Assembly (NCBI RefSeq): GCF_013377085.1
Contig: NZ_JACAAX010000027.1
Location: forward strand, 23,583-87,582
Source of the DNA: Rhodoplanes sp.
GTDB taxonomy: Bacteria > Pseudomonadota > Alphaproteobacteria > Rhizobiales > Xanthobacteraceae
Length of the DNA: 64,000 nucleotides
Direction: 5' to 3'
The notes beneath the pieces were generated by a model, which saw only the letters and a list, made by a program, of their open reading frames with translations, was not told the origin of the DNA and searched no databases. This document shows, one piece after another, positions 44,448-50,486 of the stretch (the first letter of the stretch is position 1; every line of letters begins with the position of its first letter). The position numbers were made by a program, and so were the translations under genes.

Positions 44448-45581
44448 TCAGGCCGCCGTCTTCGGCGCGAAGCTCGGGTGGACCACCGCACCGTCCTTGG
44501 TGAGGCAGGTCGACTTCACGATCTCGTCGTCCCAGTTCACCGCGAGGGCCTTGGTCTTCTTGTCGAACAGGATCTCGAGGAACGTGTAGAGGTTTTTCGC
44601 GTAGAGCGCCGACGACGAGGCGGCCAGCCGGCCGGCCACGTTGAGATGACCGACGATCTTGACGCCGTTCACCTCGACGATCTCACCCGGCTTGGCGCCC
44701 TCGACATTGCCGCCGCGCTCGACCGCGAGGTCGATGATCACCGAACCCGGCCTCATCGAGGCGACCATCTCGGCGGTGATCAGCCGCGGCGCCGGACGTC
44801 CCGGGATCAGCGCCGTGGTGATGACGATGTCCTGCTTCTTGACGTGCTCGGCGACCAGGGCCGCCTGCTTCGCCTGGTACTCCTTGGACATCTCCTTGGC
44901 GTAGCCGCCGGCGGTCTCGGCCTGCTTGAACTCGTCGTCCTCGACGGCGATGAACTTCGCCCCGAGGCTCGCCACCTGCTCCTTCACGGCGGGGCGCACG
45001 TCGGTCGCCGTCACGATGGCGCCCATGCGCCGCGCGGTGGCGATCGCCTGCAGGCCGGCGACGCCGACGCCCATGATGAAGGCCTTGGCGGCCGGCACCG
45101 TGCCGGCGGCCGTCATCATCATCGGCAGCGCGCGGCCGTATTCGGCGGCGGCGTCGATCACGGCCCGGTAGCCGGCGAGGTTCGCCTGGCTGGACAGCAC
45201 GTCCATCGACTGCGCCCGGGTGATGCGCGGCATCAGCTCCATGGCGAAGGCGACCACGCCGGCGCGGGCCAGCGCGGCGAGGGCGGCCTCGTGCCCGTAC
45301 GGGTCCATGATGGCGATGACGAGGGCGCCCTTCTTGTAGCCCGACAGCTCCATCTCGTTGGGGCGTCGCACCTTGAGGACGATGTCGGCGTCCCGCACGG
45401 CGTCGCGCGAGATGGTGGCGCCGGCGGCCTCGTAGTCGGCGTCGAGAATGCCGGACTTCACGCCTGCCCCCGGCTCGACGGCGATGTCGGCGCCGAGCGC
45501 CTTCATCTTCTTGACCGTCTCCGGTGTTCCGGCGACCCGCGGTTCGGCAGCGTCCGCCTCGGCACAAATCGCGATCTTCAT
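44448..45581 (-). CDS. pntAA: NAD(P) transhydrogenase alpha subunit, soluble part (PntAA)
   Basis: 377 aa from ATG 45581, with AGGAGA close upstream. This is the NAD(H)-binding domain [15 protein letters not shown] near the start, [15 protein letters not shown], the NAD-binding turn [24 protein letters not shown] in pieces with the expected acidic residue, [15 protein letters not shown] and [19 protein letters not shown]. Overall it is alanine-dehydrogenase-like. It follows the aa3-oxidase subunit IV gene at 71 bp and precedes pntAB. Confidence 0.96.
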
Positions 45582-45652
45582 GATGTCTCCTGCACAGGCA
45601 TGACCGGACGGGCGCGGCGACCGTTCGCTGCGGGTGCGGTCCGGATTGGTCG

Positions 45653-45805
45653 TCAGACCAGGAATATGGCCATCAGGACGAGGACCAGGACGACCGATCC
45701 GGCGCCCCATTTGACGAGCTGCAGGAAGCTCCGATAGGTCGCTTCGTGCTGAGCGTAGTCGTTGCCCGATGCAGTCTCGTACTCCACGGTGGCGTGCTCG
45801 GCCAT
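45653..45805 (-). CDS. aa3-type cytochrome c oxidase subunit IV
   Basis: 50 aa, from ATG 45805 with GGAGG 5 nt upstream. The sequence runs from EHATVEYETASGNDYAQHE through TYRSFLQLVKWGAGS to one membrane helix (VVLVLVLMAIFLV) at the C-terminus. Size and layout match the small bacterial subunit IV of aa3 oxidase, which is one helix long and of unclear role. Its place before pntAA is known from related genomes. The main oxidase genes are not in view. Confidence 0.9.
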   Translation of the reverse strand: MAEHATVEYETASGNDYAQHEATYRSFLQLVKWGAGSVVLVLVLMAIFLV

Positions 45806-46143
45806 CGCGTCCTCCAGCTCACGGGTTGCTAGGCCGGCGACTTAGCGCAAATGCGGCATCAGGGCAATGGAGTGGCCGTTTTGGGTCCGGCCGGGGGGCG
45901 GCCGCGCGGGCGGCCGGACCGGAGCGCCAAAAGTCAGCTTTGGCGGGACTTTGACGCAGTCTTTCGGGATCCGAGCCGGGACGGACCGTCGGCGGCGCGG
46001 GTCCGTAAGAATGCAGACTCGCCCGCATGCCCGCCCAGCTTCGGGCTAACTCCATCGGGAGCCGGCGACTCCGTCCACACCAGATGCCGCCGCGAGGCGT
46101 CCCGGAGCGAACAGGCCGGCCGGAAAGCGAGCAGGCGAGCGGC
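45806..46143. other. Non-coding stretch between the pnt operon and the tRNA-Gly islet
   Basis: 338 bp without a credible gene on either strand; open frames here have no ribosome-binding site and change frame into the tRNA fragment. I see no repeat family member. It presumably holds the promoter of the cox/pnt operon. Confidence 0.4.
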
Positions 46144-46191
46144 TGGAGCGGGCGATGGGAATTGAACCCACGACATACAGCTTGGGAAGCT
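46144..46191 (-). repeat. 48-bp copy of the 3' half of tRNA-Gly (candidate attachment site)
   Basis: Identical over 48 bp to 49168-49215: from the encoded CCA through acceptor strand, T-arm, variable loop and 3' half of the anticodon stem-loop. It is in the same orientation as the complete tRNA. The 5' half is missing, so it is not a working tRNA. A duplicated tRNA 3' end is the usual scar of integrase-mediated insertion. Confidence 0.93.
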
Positions 46192-46284
46192 AGCAAGATC
46201 GGCGAGATTGGCGAACGAAATCAACGTCGTTCAATTTTCATGTGCCGGTAGTGTCCCGCACATCTTCAGTTTTCTTCGCTGCAA

Positions 46285-46512
46285 CTACCGCGGCCATGAT
46301 TTGCCTAGCACGATCGACACCCGCTTGATCGACCGCTTTTCCCTCAAGAACACTCTTAAAGCTTCGCCAAGAGACAACTGGTCTTGGCGCCGGATGTACG
46401 CGCCAAAACCTTCGCTGCTATCCGTTATCCAAATCGCTCTATCCGCCACCGGTACGTGCCGCACGGGGATTTGTCGATGCGGGTTGGAAATTGTTGGCGA
46501 TGAACAGTCCAA
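46285..46512 (-). CDS. Small hypothetical protein in the tRNA-Gly islet
   Basis: 75 aa from TTG 46512, without a strong ribosome-binding site. The residue mix is protein-like rather than a compositional shadow: VPVADRAIWITDSSEGFGAY followed by IRRQDQLSLGEALRVFL and a basic end. I do not recognise a family. It lies just downstream (66 bp) of the HAF-repeat gene on the same strand, in the low-GC left end of the islet. It may be a fragment of a longer gene. Confidence 0.4.
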   Translation of the reverse strand: MDCSSPTISNPHRQIPVRHVPVADRAIWITDSSEGFGAYIRRQDQLSLGEALRVFLREKRSIKRVSIVLGKSWPR

Positions 46513-46577
46513 TCACACCGCAAGGAAACAGGAAACGGGGAGGTATGGAACGCGAAGCAATAAACGCGGCAGTCCAA

Positions 46578-48635
46578 CTAAAACCTGCTGCTCGCGTTCA
46601 CCTGGACATTGTAGGCGGTGGTCTGGCTGGACCAGGTCGACACGCCGGCCGAGACGCTGAAGGCGCTGGCTTCGCCCCACGGCAGACGAACGCCGCCCGC
46701 CAGCTCCATCCGCTCCCGGCTGATCTGCGCACCGGGCACAGTGAGACCGAACAGATCGATCAACTGGCCGGAGACCGTCTCGGCCGACGCGTTCAGCCGA
46801 TGCGCCCAGGCCGCGCTGGCCCACACCCACTTCTCCGGGCCGAACAGATAGCGGCCGTCGGCGCCGCTGCGCAGGGTGCGGGCGGTATCGTGGATATCGG
46901 CAATGACCGCCGGGAACGGGCCCGTTCCCTCGGTCCAGCCACTGAACTCTGTGCGGGCGATGGCGAGCGAGCCGAACGGCGTCACGCGAACGGTGTCGAA
47001 CGGGCCGAACGTCCAGCCGATGCGGCCGAGCGCGCCGTAGCTGCGCCCGCCGGTGGTGCCGTCCGAGACCGTGATCGCGCTGCCGTTGAGGTATCCCCGC
47101 TTGACGTCGGCTTCGAGCAGGGTGCCGGTCGCGATCGCGGTCCATTGCAGGCCGTGCTCGGGAATCCGCGCGGCGAAGATGTTGGCCGTGCCGCCCTGCA
47201 TCGAGGCGGAGCCGCCATCGGTCCAGTTGTTCTTGATGGCCGCCGCACCGGCGCTGGCGCCGACCATGTGATCCGACGGCAGGTTGCGCTTGACGCCGAT
47301 AGAGCCGACACCGGCCGGATCGAAATCGTAGAAGCCGGTGACGAACACCTCGGTCGACTTGCCGTCGTTCTTGGCGGTCCCGAAATGCTGCGTCAGCAGG
47401 TTGCTCACCGCGTTCAGCGTGCTGCCGACATAGTCGTTGCCGATCGTCGCGATCGCCGAGAGGCCGGCGAACGAACGCGCCACCGAGTCCGCGGTGATCA
47501 GGCCGCTGCCGAATTTCGGGCTGAAGCGCGCGATCCACGGCTGCTGGATGTTGTTCGGATCGATGCCGTTGCCGACGATCACCGACCCGTCGAACGAAAC
47601 ACCGACCGCATCCGTCAGTTTCCACGACCCGAGATTGACGCCGTTGGTCTGCAGCAGTTGCGCGATCGACTGCATTCCGACGGTTTGCGTCCACATGAAC
47701 GCCTGGCTGGTCGAGGTGTTGTAGATGCCGGACGAGCCGACCACCACGACACCGTTGCCGCTGATGGCAGTGGCGCTGCTCACATTCATGCCCGGCAACA
47801 CGCCGAGATCCCTCATGCCGGAGGCAGCGGTCCAGAAAAACGCCCTTTGGGTGGCGGCTGCGCCGAAGCTCGATCCGACGACGGCACTGCCATCGGCGCT
47901 GACGCCACTTGCGCCGCTGTAAATGTGGCCGGGCAGGGTTCCGAGACCCACCATGCCGGTCGCAGCCGTCCAGCGAAACGCCTGTCCATGTCCGGCGACA
48001 GCGCCGGAGCTGTCGCCGACGATCACCGACCCATCGGCGCTGGTCGCGAACGCCCGGCTTTGGGTATCACCGGGCAACATACCCAAACCGGTCATGCCGG
48101 TCGCCGCGGTCCACCTGTAGGCCGTGTTGGAGCTTGTCGCGGTGCTGCTGCTGCCGACGACAACCGAGCCGTCATAGTTGACGCCGTAGGCTTCGCTGGA
48201 ATTACCGCCCGGCAAATAGCCGAGATTGACCACTCCGGTTGCAGCCGTCCACCTGAAGGCCGCAACACCGGGAAACACGCTGTGGCCGACGATCGTCCTG
48301 CCGTCGCCGCTGATCGCGTAGGACACACTGAGCTGCCAACCGGGAGCTACGCCCAGATCGGTGATACCGGCCCCGGCTGTCCAGAGAATGGCGTGTGTGC
48401 CCGTCGTGATGCTGGATGTCGTCTGGCCCCAGCCGGCAACCGCTGTCCCGTCCCAGGACAGGCTGACCGCGTATGTCGGAAACGGCGCAACCAGCGAGCC
48501 GAGGCCCGTGAACTCGTCGGAGAAACACTCCGAGAGCGGCGCACTCGCAAGCACGGCAGACGCGACGAAACGGCGAAGCAGCCTCGCAGAAGACCGCGCC
48601 GTCATTCTCGACACCGTGCGATGTGTGGCGATCAT
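46578..48635 (-). CDS. HAF-repeat autotransporter-like outer membrane protein
   Basis: 685 aa. The basic N-terminus and hydrophobic stretch (RRFVASAVLASAPLS) look like a signal peptide. Residues 45-395 hold about seven degenerate repeats of 40-50 residues with WTAATGMxxLGxLPG and SADGSVVVGxS, as in 'HAF' extracellular repeat proteins. From about residue 430 to the end is a beta-barrel-like domain with alternating strands (TSEVFVTGFYDFD-like, GRIGWTFGPFDTVRVTPFGSLAIAR in pieces, AGGVRLPWGEASAFSVSAG) ending in phenylalanine, as in autotransporters. It is therefore likely a surface-exposed, possibly adhesive protein. It is the main cargo of the tRNA-bounded islet. Confidence 0.82.
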   Translation of the reverse strand: MIATHRTVSRMTARSSARLLRRFVASAVLASAPLSECFSDEFTGLGSLVAPFPTYAVSLSWDGTAVAGWGQTTSSITTGTHAILWTAGAGITDLGVAPGWQLSVSYAISGDGRTIVGHSVFPGVAAFRWTAATGVVNLGYLPGGNSSEAYGVNYDGSVVVGSSSTATSSNTAYRWTAATGMTGLGMLPGDTQSRAFATSADGSVIVGDSSGAVAGHGQAFRWTAATGMVGLGTLPGHIYSGASGVSADGSAVVGSSFGAAATQRAFFWTAASGMRDLGVLPGMNVSSATAISGNGVVVVGSSGIYNTSTSQAFMWTQTVGMQSIAQLLQTNGVNLGSWKLTDAVGVSFDGSVIVGNGIDPNNIQQPWIARFSPKFGSGLITADSVARSFAGLSAIATIGNDYVGSTLNAVSNLLTQHFGTAKNDGKSTEVFVTGFYDFDPAGVGSIGVKRNLPSDHMVGASAGAAAIKNNWTDGGSASMQGGTANIFAARIPEHGLQWTAIATGTLLEADVKRGYLNGSAITVSDGTTGGRSYGALGRIGWTFGPFDTVRVTPFGSLAIARTEFSGWTEGTGPFPAVIADIHDTARTLRSGADGRYLFGPEKWVWASAAWAHRLNASAETVSGQLIDLFGLTVPGAQISRERMELAGGVRLPWGEASAFSVSAGVSTWSSQTTAYNVQVNASSRF

Positions 48636-49166
48636 CCCGGCCCCCCAACCGGTGCAACGGTCGCGGGCCGGATGCTGCCACGGACAGCGAGAAAGGGCAA
48701 TTTACGGCCGACCAGTTCCTCTGCGGTCGTCGAGGCAAACGCGAGGCGGGGCGGCAGACCCTGCGCGCCTGCGTTGCGGAGCCAGTCGGGGGCTTGCCTG
48801 ACTGCCTATGGGATGCTGTGCCGCTTCAAATGCGAAGCGTCTCGATCGCGGTGGCACGGCCGGCATGATCGTCGATCGCTCGGATGAACTCCGCGGCGTT
48901 GGTCCCGGTGGCGCCACCCCGCAGGAAATGGTCCCGGCACTTTTTCAGTTCGGCAACTTCACAAATCAACTCGCCGTCCTAACGGAAATCGAACGTCGCG
49001 CGCGTTTCATGTGTCAACCATGTCACACGGAGGAATTGGAAACCGACGGTGAAGCGCGCCGGAACGGTTGGAAATCGTTGATAACGTGCGGTTTTCTTGA
49101 AATTTGTTTTGAACGAGACGTTGGCACACGGAATCGGCCGAAATACCGGCTAACCAACTGATTTCA
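48636..49166. other. Low-GC stretch between the HAF-repeat gene and tRNA-Gly
   Basis: 531 bp with noticeably lower GC toward the tRNA (for example GTTTTCTTGAAATTTGTTTT near 49091). A plus-strand open frame at 48808-49161 (117 codons) has no recognised domain or ribosome-binding site; it may be a remnant. The promoter of the HAF-repeat gene should lie here. No recombinase remnant was recognised. Confidence 0.4.
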
Positions 49167-49167
49167 C

Positions 49168-49242
49168 TGGAGCGGGCGATGGGAATTGAACCCACGACAT
49201 ACAGCTTGGGAAGCTGTCGTTCTACCACTGAACTACGCCCGC
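49168..49242 (-). tRNA. tRNA-Gly (anticodon CCC)
   Basis: 75 nt including an encoded CCA. Acceptor GCGGGCG pairs with CGCCCGC, the D-arm is GTTC/GAAC, and the anticodon stem ACAGC/GCTGT holds the loop TTCCCAA, giving anticodon CCC (49208-49210). The T-arm is GTGGG-TTCAATT-CCCAT. Its 3' 48 nt are duplicated at 46144-46191. Confidence 0.97.
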
Positions 49243-49379: not shown

Positions 49380-50486
49380 TCACGGCCGGAAATGCTTGGA
49401 GAGCTTGAGGCCCTGGGCCTGGTAGTTGGAGCCGATGCCCTCGCCGTAGAGCTGGTCGGGCTGCGCCAGCATGCGCTCGTAGACGAGGCGGCCGACCGTC
49501 TGGCCGTGCTCGATGATGAACGGCACCTCGTGCGAGCGCACCTCGAGCACGGCGCGCGAGCCGCCGCCGCCGGCCTCGTCGACGCCGAAGCCGGGATCGA
49601 AGAAGCCCGCATAGTGCACCCGGAACTCGCCGACCAGCGGGTCGAACGGCACCATCTCGGCGGCGTAGTCGGGCGGCACCTGCACGGCCTGCTTCGACGC
49701 CAGGATGTAGAACTCGTCGGGATCGAGGATGAGGGTGCGGCTGCGATTGGCGCGCAGCGGCTCCCAGTATTCGCCGACCTCGTAGCGGGCGCGGCGGTCG
49801 ACGTCGATCAGCCCGGTATGGTGCTTGGCCCGGTAGCCGACCAGAGCGTCGGGCCCGAAGCCGGCGAGGTCGACCCCGACCGCGACGCCGTCGACCAGAT
49901 CCGCCCCCTCCTCGTCGACCAGGCGCTCCTGCGCGTGCAAGGCCGTGAGGTCGTCGCCGATCACCAGGTCGCGGCCGCGATGGAAGCGCATCTGCGCCAG
50001 CCGCGAGCCCTCGCGCACCAGCACCGGGAAGGTGCGCGGGCTGATCTCCAGATAGAGCGGGCCGTGGTAGCCGGGGTCGATGCGGTCGAACGACCGCGCC
50101 GCATCGGCGATCACCCGGGTGAACACGTCGAGCCGGCCCGTGGAGCTCTTCGGATTGGCGGCGGCGCCGAGATCGGCCGGCAGCGCCAGGCTCTCCAAGA
50201 GCGGCACGATGTAGACGCAGCCGGTCTCCAGCACGGCGCCGTCGCCGAGCGCGATCTCGTGCAGCTTGAGGCTGTCGATGCGCTGCGCCACCGAGGCGCG
50301 CGGCCCAGGCAGGAAGCTCGCCCGCACCCGGTAGGCGACCTCGCCGAGCCGCAGGTCGAGGCTGGCGGGCTGGATCTGGTCGTCGGCCAGGGGCACAGCC
50401 GTGATGATGCCGCCCGACGAGGTCAGCGCGGCGATCATCCGGTCGGGCAGGATGCCCCGGTCGGTGGGGCCGAAGGCGAGCGGCAC
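49380..50486 (-). CDS. dcd: dCTP deaminase, double-domain form
   Basis: 368 aa, about twice the usual Dcd length, from GTG 50486 with GAGGAGG just upstream. It converts dCTP to dUTP for thymidylate synthesis. Both halves carry dUTPase-fold elements: IQPASLDLRLGE, NPKSSTGRLDVFTRV, DPGYHGPLYLEIS in the first, and DPDEFYILASKQAVQVPPDYAAEM in pieces, FDPGFGVDEAGGGGSRAVLEVRSHEVPF in pieces, GRLVYERM in the second. This internally duplicated form is usual in Rhizobiales. It is divergent from metZ, and the SAM-II riboswitch lies between. Confidence 0.9.
   Translation of the reverse strand: MPLAFGPTDRGILPDRMIAALTSSGGIITAVPLADDQIQPASLDLRLGEVAYRVRASFLPGPRASVAQRIDSLKLHEIALGDGAVLETGCVYIVPLLESLALPADLGAAANPKSSTGRLDVFTRVIADAARSFDRIDPGYHGPLYLEISPRTFPVLVREGSRLAQMRFHRGRDLVIGDDLTALHAQERLVDEEGADLVDGVAVGVDLAGFGPDALVGYRAKHHTGLIDVDRRARYEVGEYWEPLRANRSRTLILDPDEFYILASKQAVQVPPDYAAEMVPFDPLVGEFRVHYAGFFDPGFGVDEAGGGGSRAVLEVRSHEVPFIIEHGQTVGRLVYERMLAQPDQLYGEGIGSNYQAQGLKLSKHFRP

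What the first reader, a model, noticed from the sequence alone, without database searches (positions are those of the whole stretch)
46144..49242. 3-kb islet bounded by tRNA-Gly(CCC) and an exact 48-bp copy of its 3' end
The duplication, its orientation, its place 3' of the tRNA, and the lower GC of the islet ends all fit site-specific integration. No integrase is present, so it is either a decayed island or a very small element mobilised in trans. The cargo is a surface protein, which hints at niche- or phage-related selection.
Basis: partly seen in the sequence, partly recalled or inferred. Interest (0 to 1): 0.75.

Follow-up and report, generated by a model that had tools for sequence, protein, structure and literature searches.

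The report
Integrase-less islet in a tRNA gene
A 3-kb stretch of DNA carrying one intact gene, predicted to make a surface protein, sits behind a glycine tRNA gene in a likely Rhodoplanes bacterium between two identical 49-base repeats; it was likely inserted there by an integration enzyme that it does not itself encode, which would make it a small example of a known kind of mobile-DNA remnant.

Summary
In detail: an exact 49-bp copy of the 3' half of tRNA-Gly(CCC) lies 3,024 bp away in the same orientation. The islet holds one intact gene, a HAF-repeat autotransporter, and no recombinase was found in it. Site-specific insertion is well supported. Two congeners (G001, G002) have pntA beside the tRNA and no islet. 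A third, identified as Rhodoplanes serenus, has a different 11.3-kb island in the same tRNA, broken in the same anticodon loop, with a tyrosine integrase 83 bp from the tRNA. A strict fragment pattern hits 12 of 391 family genomes, this one included. The tRNA-Gly integrase clade is absent from this genome, and the islet lacks that clade's arm-like repeats, so source and mobiliser are unidentified. Both copies share a T-loop base that the other 45 of 47 fetched copies lack, pointing to close kin or gene conversion. Three more intervals of 1.6-2.5 kb without an integrase match occur at this tRNA in relatives. Best reading: a stranded, CIME-like islet; a new member of a known kind. Mobilisation in trans is neither shown nor excluded.

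The parts
49168..49242 (-). tRNA-Gly(CCC), the integration target, intact
   Evidence: ARAGORN, Rfam RF00005 73.5 bits
49167..49215 (-). att copy inside the tRNA (3' half from the anticodon loop, plus one base)
   Evidence: exact 49-bp direct repeat
46143..46191 (-). displaced copy of the tRNA 3' half, far end of the islet
   Evidence: exact 49-bp direct repeat; diverges at once after the anticodon loop
46192..49166 (.). islet, 2,975 bp, absent between pntA and tRNA in G001 and G002
   Evidence: empty sites
46578..48635 (-). HAF-repeat autotransporter, 685 aa, intact reading frame
   Evidence: TIGR02913 2.6e-27, PF03797 2e-18, model mean pLDDT 86.2 and Foldseek best match EstA
46192..46577 (.). 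low-GC end next to the displaced copy (GC 0.531), no recognisable gene
48636..49166 (.). lower-GC end next to the tRNA (GC 0.605; 0.554 from 48840), no recognisable gene
48826..48978 (-). short open piece of 50 aa bounded upstream by an in-frame stop; possible trace of a decayed gene (weak)
   Evidence: no family or homologue
46484..46493 (+). TTGGAAAYYG site, possible arm-type site (lead only)
   Evidence: 3 in the window, all in the islet ends, 0.08 expected; chosen after inspection
49036..49045 (+). TTGGAAAYYG site, possible arm-type site (lead only)
49068..49077 (+). TTGGAAAYYG site, possible arm-type site (lead only)
44448..45710 (-). pntA, chromosomal flank beyond the displaced copy
   Evidence: PF01262, PF05222; conserved neighbour in G001-G003
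49380..50486 (-). dcd (dCTP deaminase), flank on the 5' side of the tRNA
   Evidence: PF06559, PF22569

Best explanation
A 3.0-kb islet with one intact autotransporter gene sits between the tRNA-Gly(CCC) gene and a displaced copy of its 3' half; it was likely inserted by a tyrosine recombinase crossing over in the anticodon loop and is likely now stranded, since no recombinase gene was found in it. Inferred steps: an element whose att site matched the tRNA 3' half entered; its copy restored the tRNA and the old 3' half was pushed out to 46143-46191; the integrase and most of the rest were later lost, leaving both att ends and one cargo gene, that is, a CIME-like remnant. Shown: the repeat, its orientation and breakpoint, empty sites in two congeners, a different island at the same tRNA in a third, the intact reading frame, and no recombinase match. 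Inferred: the enzyme class, the loss of the integrase, and the surface function of the protein. Not known: the parent element.
For: Exact 49-bp repeat ending at the anticodon loop. Empty sites in G001 and G002: pntA flank, then about 200-235 bp, then a single tRNA-Gly(CCC). G004 (R. serenus) carries a different 11.3-kb island with a 47-bp copy and an integrase (phrog_1, 1.7e-17) ending 83 bp from the tRNA. 12 of 391 family genomes, this one included, hold a strict-pattern fragment; the reversed-pattern control is 0 in every row shown. BLAST finds fragments ending, or 5' halves starting, in the anticodon region in family genomes. Cargo protein not found in 5 congeners. GC3 0.84 against 0.907-0.954 for four neighbouring genes. 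The displaced copy has 0 of 49 differences although the flank is about 17% diverged from G001.
Against: No parent element with the same ends was found in 390 other family genomes, 396 other order genomes for the 231-bp tRNA-proximal end, or viral contigs, plasmids and phages. The islet has none of the GRGGAACG repeats that 9 of 9 tRNA-Gly-integrase loci have beside the tRNA, so it does not derive simply from the one clade known at this site. No trace of an integrase remains. Both copies share a base that 45 of 47 fetched copies lack, which plain insertion of a distant element would not give. The recombinase class is inferred from the breakpoint and from other islands, not observed.
Confidence: 0.65

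Rival explanations
1. A minimal element that is still mobile: the islet keeps working att arms and is excised and reintegrated in trans by an integrase supplied by another element.
For: Both att copies are exact and the gene is intact. Short intervals without a PF00589 match recur at this tRNA: G230 2.1 kb, G348 2.5 kb and an outer 1.6-kb interval in G347. TTGGAAAYYG occurs in both ends and nowhere else in the window.
Against: No cognate integrase in this genome: two of its nine lie beside tRNA-Gln and tRNA-Asp, and the other seven have no tRNA within their fetched loci. No second copy of the islet was found in relatives. The four short intervals share no similarity by blastn at E 0.01 or tblastx at E 0.001. 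The TTGGAAAYYG motif was chosen after inspection, and the two ends' best direct match was reached by 3 of 60 shuffles.
Confidence: 0.15
2. The islet came in by homologous recombination with DNA from a close relative that already carried it beside this tRNA, so that no recombinase acted in this lineage.
For: Both copies carry the same T-loop base, absent from the other 45 of 47 fetched copies, as expected if the whole locus came from kin.
Against: Gene conversion between the copies explains the base equally well. It only moves the integration event to another strain. No kin with the islet is held: none of the 5 congeners has the protein.
Confidence: 0.12
3. The distal copy is the remnant of a tandem tRNA-Gly gene.
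For: A partial tRNA copy beside a tRNA gene can arise by duplication.
Against: Identity stops sharply at the anticodon loop, as in fragments of other family genomes. G001 and G002 have a single tRNA-Gly(CCC) in the fetched locus. A gene not found in the congeners lies between the copies.
Confidence: 0.03

Closest known systems
[quoted passage not shown]
   Same: Two att-like copies at a tRNA gene, cargo between them, no integrase or transfer gene
   Different: No parent ICE or IME with the same ends was found, so descent from one is not shown; only one cargo gene remains
Island at the same tRNA-Gly(CCC) in Rhodoplanes serenus (G004, L037) with its tyrosine integrase clade
   Same: Same target gene, same break in the anticodon loop, same genus
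   Different: 11.3 kb, carries an integrase 83 bp from the tRNA, has GRGGAACG repeats there; the islet has neither
Dehalococcoides ssrA islands (PMC3146451, abstract and one section read)
   Same: Islands bounded by copies of the 3' end of one RNA gene; 16 of 31 are reported to hold the integration module
   Different: Serine recombinases, tmRNA gene, T-loop crossover; tandem arrays
Azorhizobium symbiosis island ICEAc, 87.6 kb (PMC9601964 passages; gly-tRNA target from a passage of PMC8954435)
   Same: A glycine tRNA gene as target; Azorhizobium is, from memory, in the same order
   Different: Large conjugative element with its own integrase; its att site was not compared here

Membership tests
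tRNA-targeted genomic island (Islander signature: tRNA gene plus displaced fragment plus integrase) | Intact tRNA gene and displaced fragment in the same orientation | tested here: met
tRNA-targeted genomic island (Islander signature: tRNA gene plus displaced fragment plus integrase) | Integrase gene in the interval | tested here: not met
   Islander tests candidates for one (PMC4383910, passages)
tRNA-targeted genomic island (Islander signature: tRNA gene plus displaced fragment plus integrase) | Empty site in close relatives | tested here: met
   G001 and G002; G003 has about 0.8 kb of other DNA and one tRNA copy; G004 has another island; G005 (58% complete) gave no match
CIME | attL and attR retained, integration and transfer genes absent | tested here: met
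   the only long gene is the autotransporter
CIME | Descent from an ICE or IME, shown by shared ends or a cognate element | tested here: not met
   no element with the same ends found; the tRNA-Gly clade's repeats are absent
CIME | Can be mobilised in cis or trans by a related element | not testable with these tools
   needs an excision or transfer assay
HAF-repeat autotransporter (cargo) | HAF repeats plus C-terminal autotransporter beta-domain | tested here: met
   TIGR02913 and PF03797 above their cut-offs; model and Foldseek

The most novel reading that the evidence does not exclude
tRNA-Gly(CCC) in this family hosts a class of one- or few-gene, integrase-less cassettes of about 1.6-3 kb (a surface protein here, a Fic-domain candidate defence protein in G230, a luciferase-like monooxygenase in G348) that carry their own arm sites and are shuffled in trans by tRNA integrases, like integron cassettes with a tRNA gene at the head.
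Probability: 0.08. Interest if true: 0.65.

Novelty: new member of a known kind. Interest (0 to 1): 0.3.

Why it matters
It shows how a single intact surface-protein gene can be left in a tRNA integration site with no sign of the machinery that brought it. Island finders that require an integrase gene would miss it. Three further short intervals at the same tRNA in relatives suggest that such leftovers recur and can be surveyed by the breakpoint alone. The shared private T-loop base gives a test of where the element came from.

Tried and rejected
Tandem tRNA remnant: rejected (breakpoint, single tRNA-Gly(CCC) beside pntA in two congeners, a gene foreign to the congeners between the copies).

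Integrase remnant in the islet: 13 integrases or pieces of them by tblastn, best E 0.25, rejected.

Derivation from the tRNA-Gly integrase clade: disfavoured; the islet has no GRGGAACG on either strand, against clustered copies beside the tRNA in 9 of 9 loci.

Same islet elsewhere: 391 family genomes at DNA level (own included) gave gene-like or short matches and one 44-bp match at 89% in G297 over the tRNA-proximal end, beside an unrelated 304-aa ORF. 397 order genomes with the 231-bp end: the own match and three of about 30-41 bases. Viral contigs with the cargo protein and two DNA patterns: nothing. Genome contigs with the strict fragment pattern: R. serenus only. Islet ends against the ends of islands in 18 fetched loci: two 14-base matches. 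Plasmids and phages: listed matches are the tRNA parts.

Open piece at 48826-48978: no Pfam or PHROGs family, and no homologue in a search limited to proteins of similar length; left unexplained.

Clean empty site for the G230 islet: not found; its left flank also lies beside the fragment of the 128-kb interval in G261 and about 25 kb from the tRNA in G133.
Full report
What is there. The window holds one tRNA gene, tRNA-Gly(CCC), 49168-49242 on the minus strand. A 49-bp direct repeat, identical, lies at 49167-49215 (within the tRNA, from the anticodon loop to the 3' end plus one base) and at 46143-46191. A 251-bp query spanning the distal copy matched three places of the 6.48-Mb genome: itself, the tRNA copy at 100%, and a tRNA-Gly(GCC) at 83%. 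Between the copies lie 2,975 bp with one well-supported long gene on the minus strand (46578-48635) and two lower-GC ends (0.531 and 0.554, against 0.664 in the gene).

Where it is. The gene order is pntB-pntA-[islet]-tRNA-dcd (pntB named from its neighbour and its conserved place, not by a family search).

Empty sites. In G001 and G002 the pntA flank (83.3% identity over 318 bp and 81.8% over 286 bp) leads to a single tRNA-Gly(CCC), with about 200 and 235 bp between the end of the alignment and the tRNA; in the window the matching distance to the displaced copy is about 228 bp. G003 has about 0.8 kb there and no second copy in the fetched locus. G004 has a different island of 11.3 kb start to start: its 47-bp fragment breaks in the same anticodon loop, and a tyrosine integrase (phrog_1, 1.7e-17; its Pfam match of 21.7 bits is below Pfam's cut-off) ends 83 bp from the tRNA. 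pntA was not found within the 43 kb fetched beyond the G004 fragment, so that locus is rearranged or holds more insertions. G005, 58% complete, gave no match to the tRNA-dcd query. The cargo protein was found in none of the 5 congeners and in 1 of 59 other genomes, a 73-residue stretch at 45% identity in another genus.

The site is used widely. A pattern made to match displaced 3' fragments but not the full gene hits 12 of 391 family genomes, this one and G004 included (14 copies; reversed-pattern control 0 in every row shown). The pattern is strict and misses at least the fragment of G011 seen by BLAST. By BLAST, fragments end, or 5' halves begin, in the anticodon region. Where fragment and full gene share a contig, the start-to-start intervals are 3.0 kb (G000), 11.3 (G004), 17.5 (G226), 2.1 (G230), 2.5 (G348), 107 with a further outer interval of 1.6 (G347), 128 (G261), about 21 (G016) and 59 (G011); in G382 the two are 715 kb apart and probably not one element. 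PF00589 matches lie within the G004, G226, large G347, G261 and G011 intervals (three of them, G004, G261 and G011, under the Pfam cut-off) and in none of the four short ones or in G016. Serine recombinases were not searched for in the relatives' short intervals. The fragments of G402 and G336 and the two of G298 lie on contigs without a full tRNA-Gly(CCC) match, and that of G009 on a 3-kb contig; these were not measured.

The cognate integrase clade. With the R. serenus integrase as query, 66 of 391 family genomes match at E 1e-10 or better; this genome does not. Of the 10 loci fetched at 68% identity or more (R. serenus itself included), 9 have tRNA-Gly(CCC) in the locus; G011's does not. 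Of the 10 loci fetched at 35-45% identity, none has tRNA-Gly; one has tRNA-Lys, one tRNA-Pro, eight none. Short matches of 74-84% identity in G339, G215, G084 and a second in G011 were not fetched. Between integrase and tRNA all 9 loci carry two or three clustered GRGGAACG repeats, which I read as arm-type sites (inference); the islet with both att copies has none on either strand. So its ends are not those of this clade.

Private variant. Both att copies of this genome carry a T where the other 45 of 47 distinct copies in the loci held (41 full genes, 4 fragments) carry C; the count covers only copies that fit a fixed expression. An attP from afar should bring C. Either the element came from close kin, or the copies were homogenised later. 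The displaced copy differs at 0 of 49 positions while the flank is about 17% diverged from G001, so the insertion is probably younger than that split (a plain figure of 1e-4 that ignores homogenisation).

Cargo. The 685-aa protein has an autotransporter beta-domain (PF03797, 2e-18) and HAF repeats (TIGR02913, 2.6e-27). An AlphaFold2 model (24 sequences, mean pLDDT 86.2, pTM 0.77; residues 1-39 under 50) shows repeated beta-strands, a helical stretch and a strand-rich C-terminal domain. Foldseek's best match is the autotransporter EstA (E 9.1e-15), other autotransporters follow, and TolB, which I know as a beta-propeller protein, is ninth (2.8e-07); EstA is also the only solved relative by sequence. 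A protein search passed 7,201 of 7,998 scored candidates; among the 120 listed, only P0002 is close (92%), and those covering 80% or more of the query are otherwise at 44% or less. It hits no PADLOC family. Its surface role is predicted only.

Short intervals elsewhere. G230's holds a 524-aa Fic-domain protein (PF02661; PADLOC PDC-S24, 1.9e-182), G348's a luciferase-like monooxygenase (PF00296), and G347's outer one a 230-aa ORF with a weak MptE-like match below the cut-off and a 134-aa ORF with none. The four interiors share no similarity.

Other ends. TTGGAAAYYG occurs three times in the window, all in the islet ends, 0.08 expected. The motif was chosen after inspecting the ends, and the best direct match between the two ends was reached by 3 of 60 shuffles, so this is a lead only.

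How it most likely works. A tyrosine recombinase likely crossed over in the anticodon loop; the incoming 3' half restored the tRNA and the old one now ends the islet. The integrase is gone. I take it as a CIME-like stranded islet (0.65). CIME is used as PMC5704250 defines it (passages seen). The Dehalococcoides ssrA islands, 16 of 31 with the integration module (PMC3146451, abstract and section 5 read), are a precedent for islands bounded by copies of one RNA gene. Islander tests candidates for an integrase gene (PMC4383910, passages) and so would not list this one; the same passages count 3,760 of 3,919 islands with a 3' fragment and 2,083 with an anticodon-centred site, so the breakpoint is an ordinary one. 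The link between integrase subfamily and tRNA sub-site (Williams 2002) was seen only as a reference and is recalled.

What is not known: the parent element, whether the islet can still move, and what the protein does. Literature searches on Rhodoplanes islands, CIMEs, glycine-tRNA islands, HAF autotransporters and integrase-less islands listed no paper whose title or abstract start describes this locus; only the five papers named with passages or sections (PMC3146451, PMC4383910, PMC5704250, PMC8954435, PMC9601964) were opened.

Noticed in passing
L145-L151, L153, L156 (R. serenus integrase and relatives): A tRNA-Gly(CCC)-specific tyrosine integrase clade sits beside the tRNA, with clustered GRGGAACG repeats and, in most, a conserved TAGTTCARCGGTAG box that resembles the D-arm of the tRNA itself.
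   Followed up: partly
L128:3053-5270 (G230): A 2.1-kb interval with no PF00589 match at the same tRNA holds a single Fic-domain protein that matches PADLOC candidate PDC-S24 at 1.9e-182.
   Followed up: partly
L129:3630-6224 (G348) and L130:3816-5482 (G347): Two more short intervals without a PF00589 match: 2.5 kb with a luciferase-like monooxygenase, and 1.6 kb with a 230-aa ORF and a 134-aa ORF.
   Followed up: partly
L039, L041 (G008, G028) and G382:C1:3201872 and 3218328: At the same tRNA a second, different integrase type leaves a 5' half of the tRNA beside its integrase, on the other side of the gene, with the full gene 18-73 kb away.
   Followed up: no
L034, L035, L036 (G001, G002, G003): On the 5' side of the tRNA, tRNA and dcd are about 3-10 kb apart in three congeners but only 137 bp apart in the window; the contents were not examined beyond ORF lists.
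   Followed up: no
G000:C26:62273-62653 (L059) and G000:C45:9525-9938 (L060): Two integrases of this genome lie beside tRNA-Gln(CTG) and tRNA-Asp(GTC); the first has an in-frame stop.
   Followed up: no
window 49002-49045 and L099: A 44-bp block of the tRNA-proximal islet end recurs at 89% in G297 beside an unrelated 304-aa ORF.
   Followed up: partly
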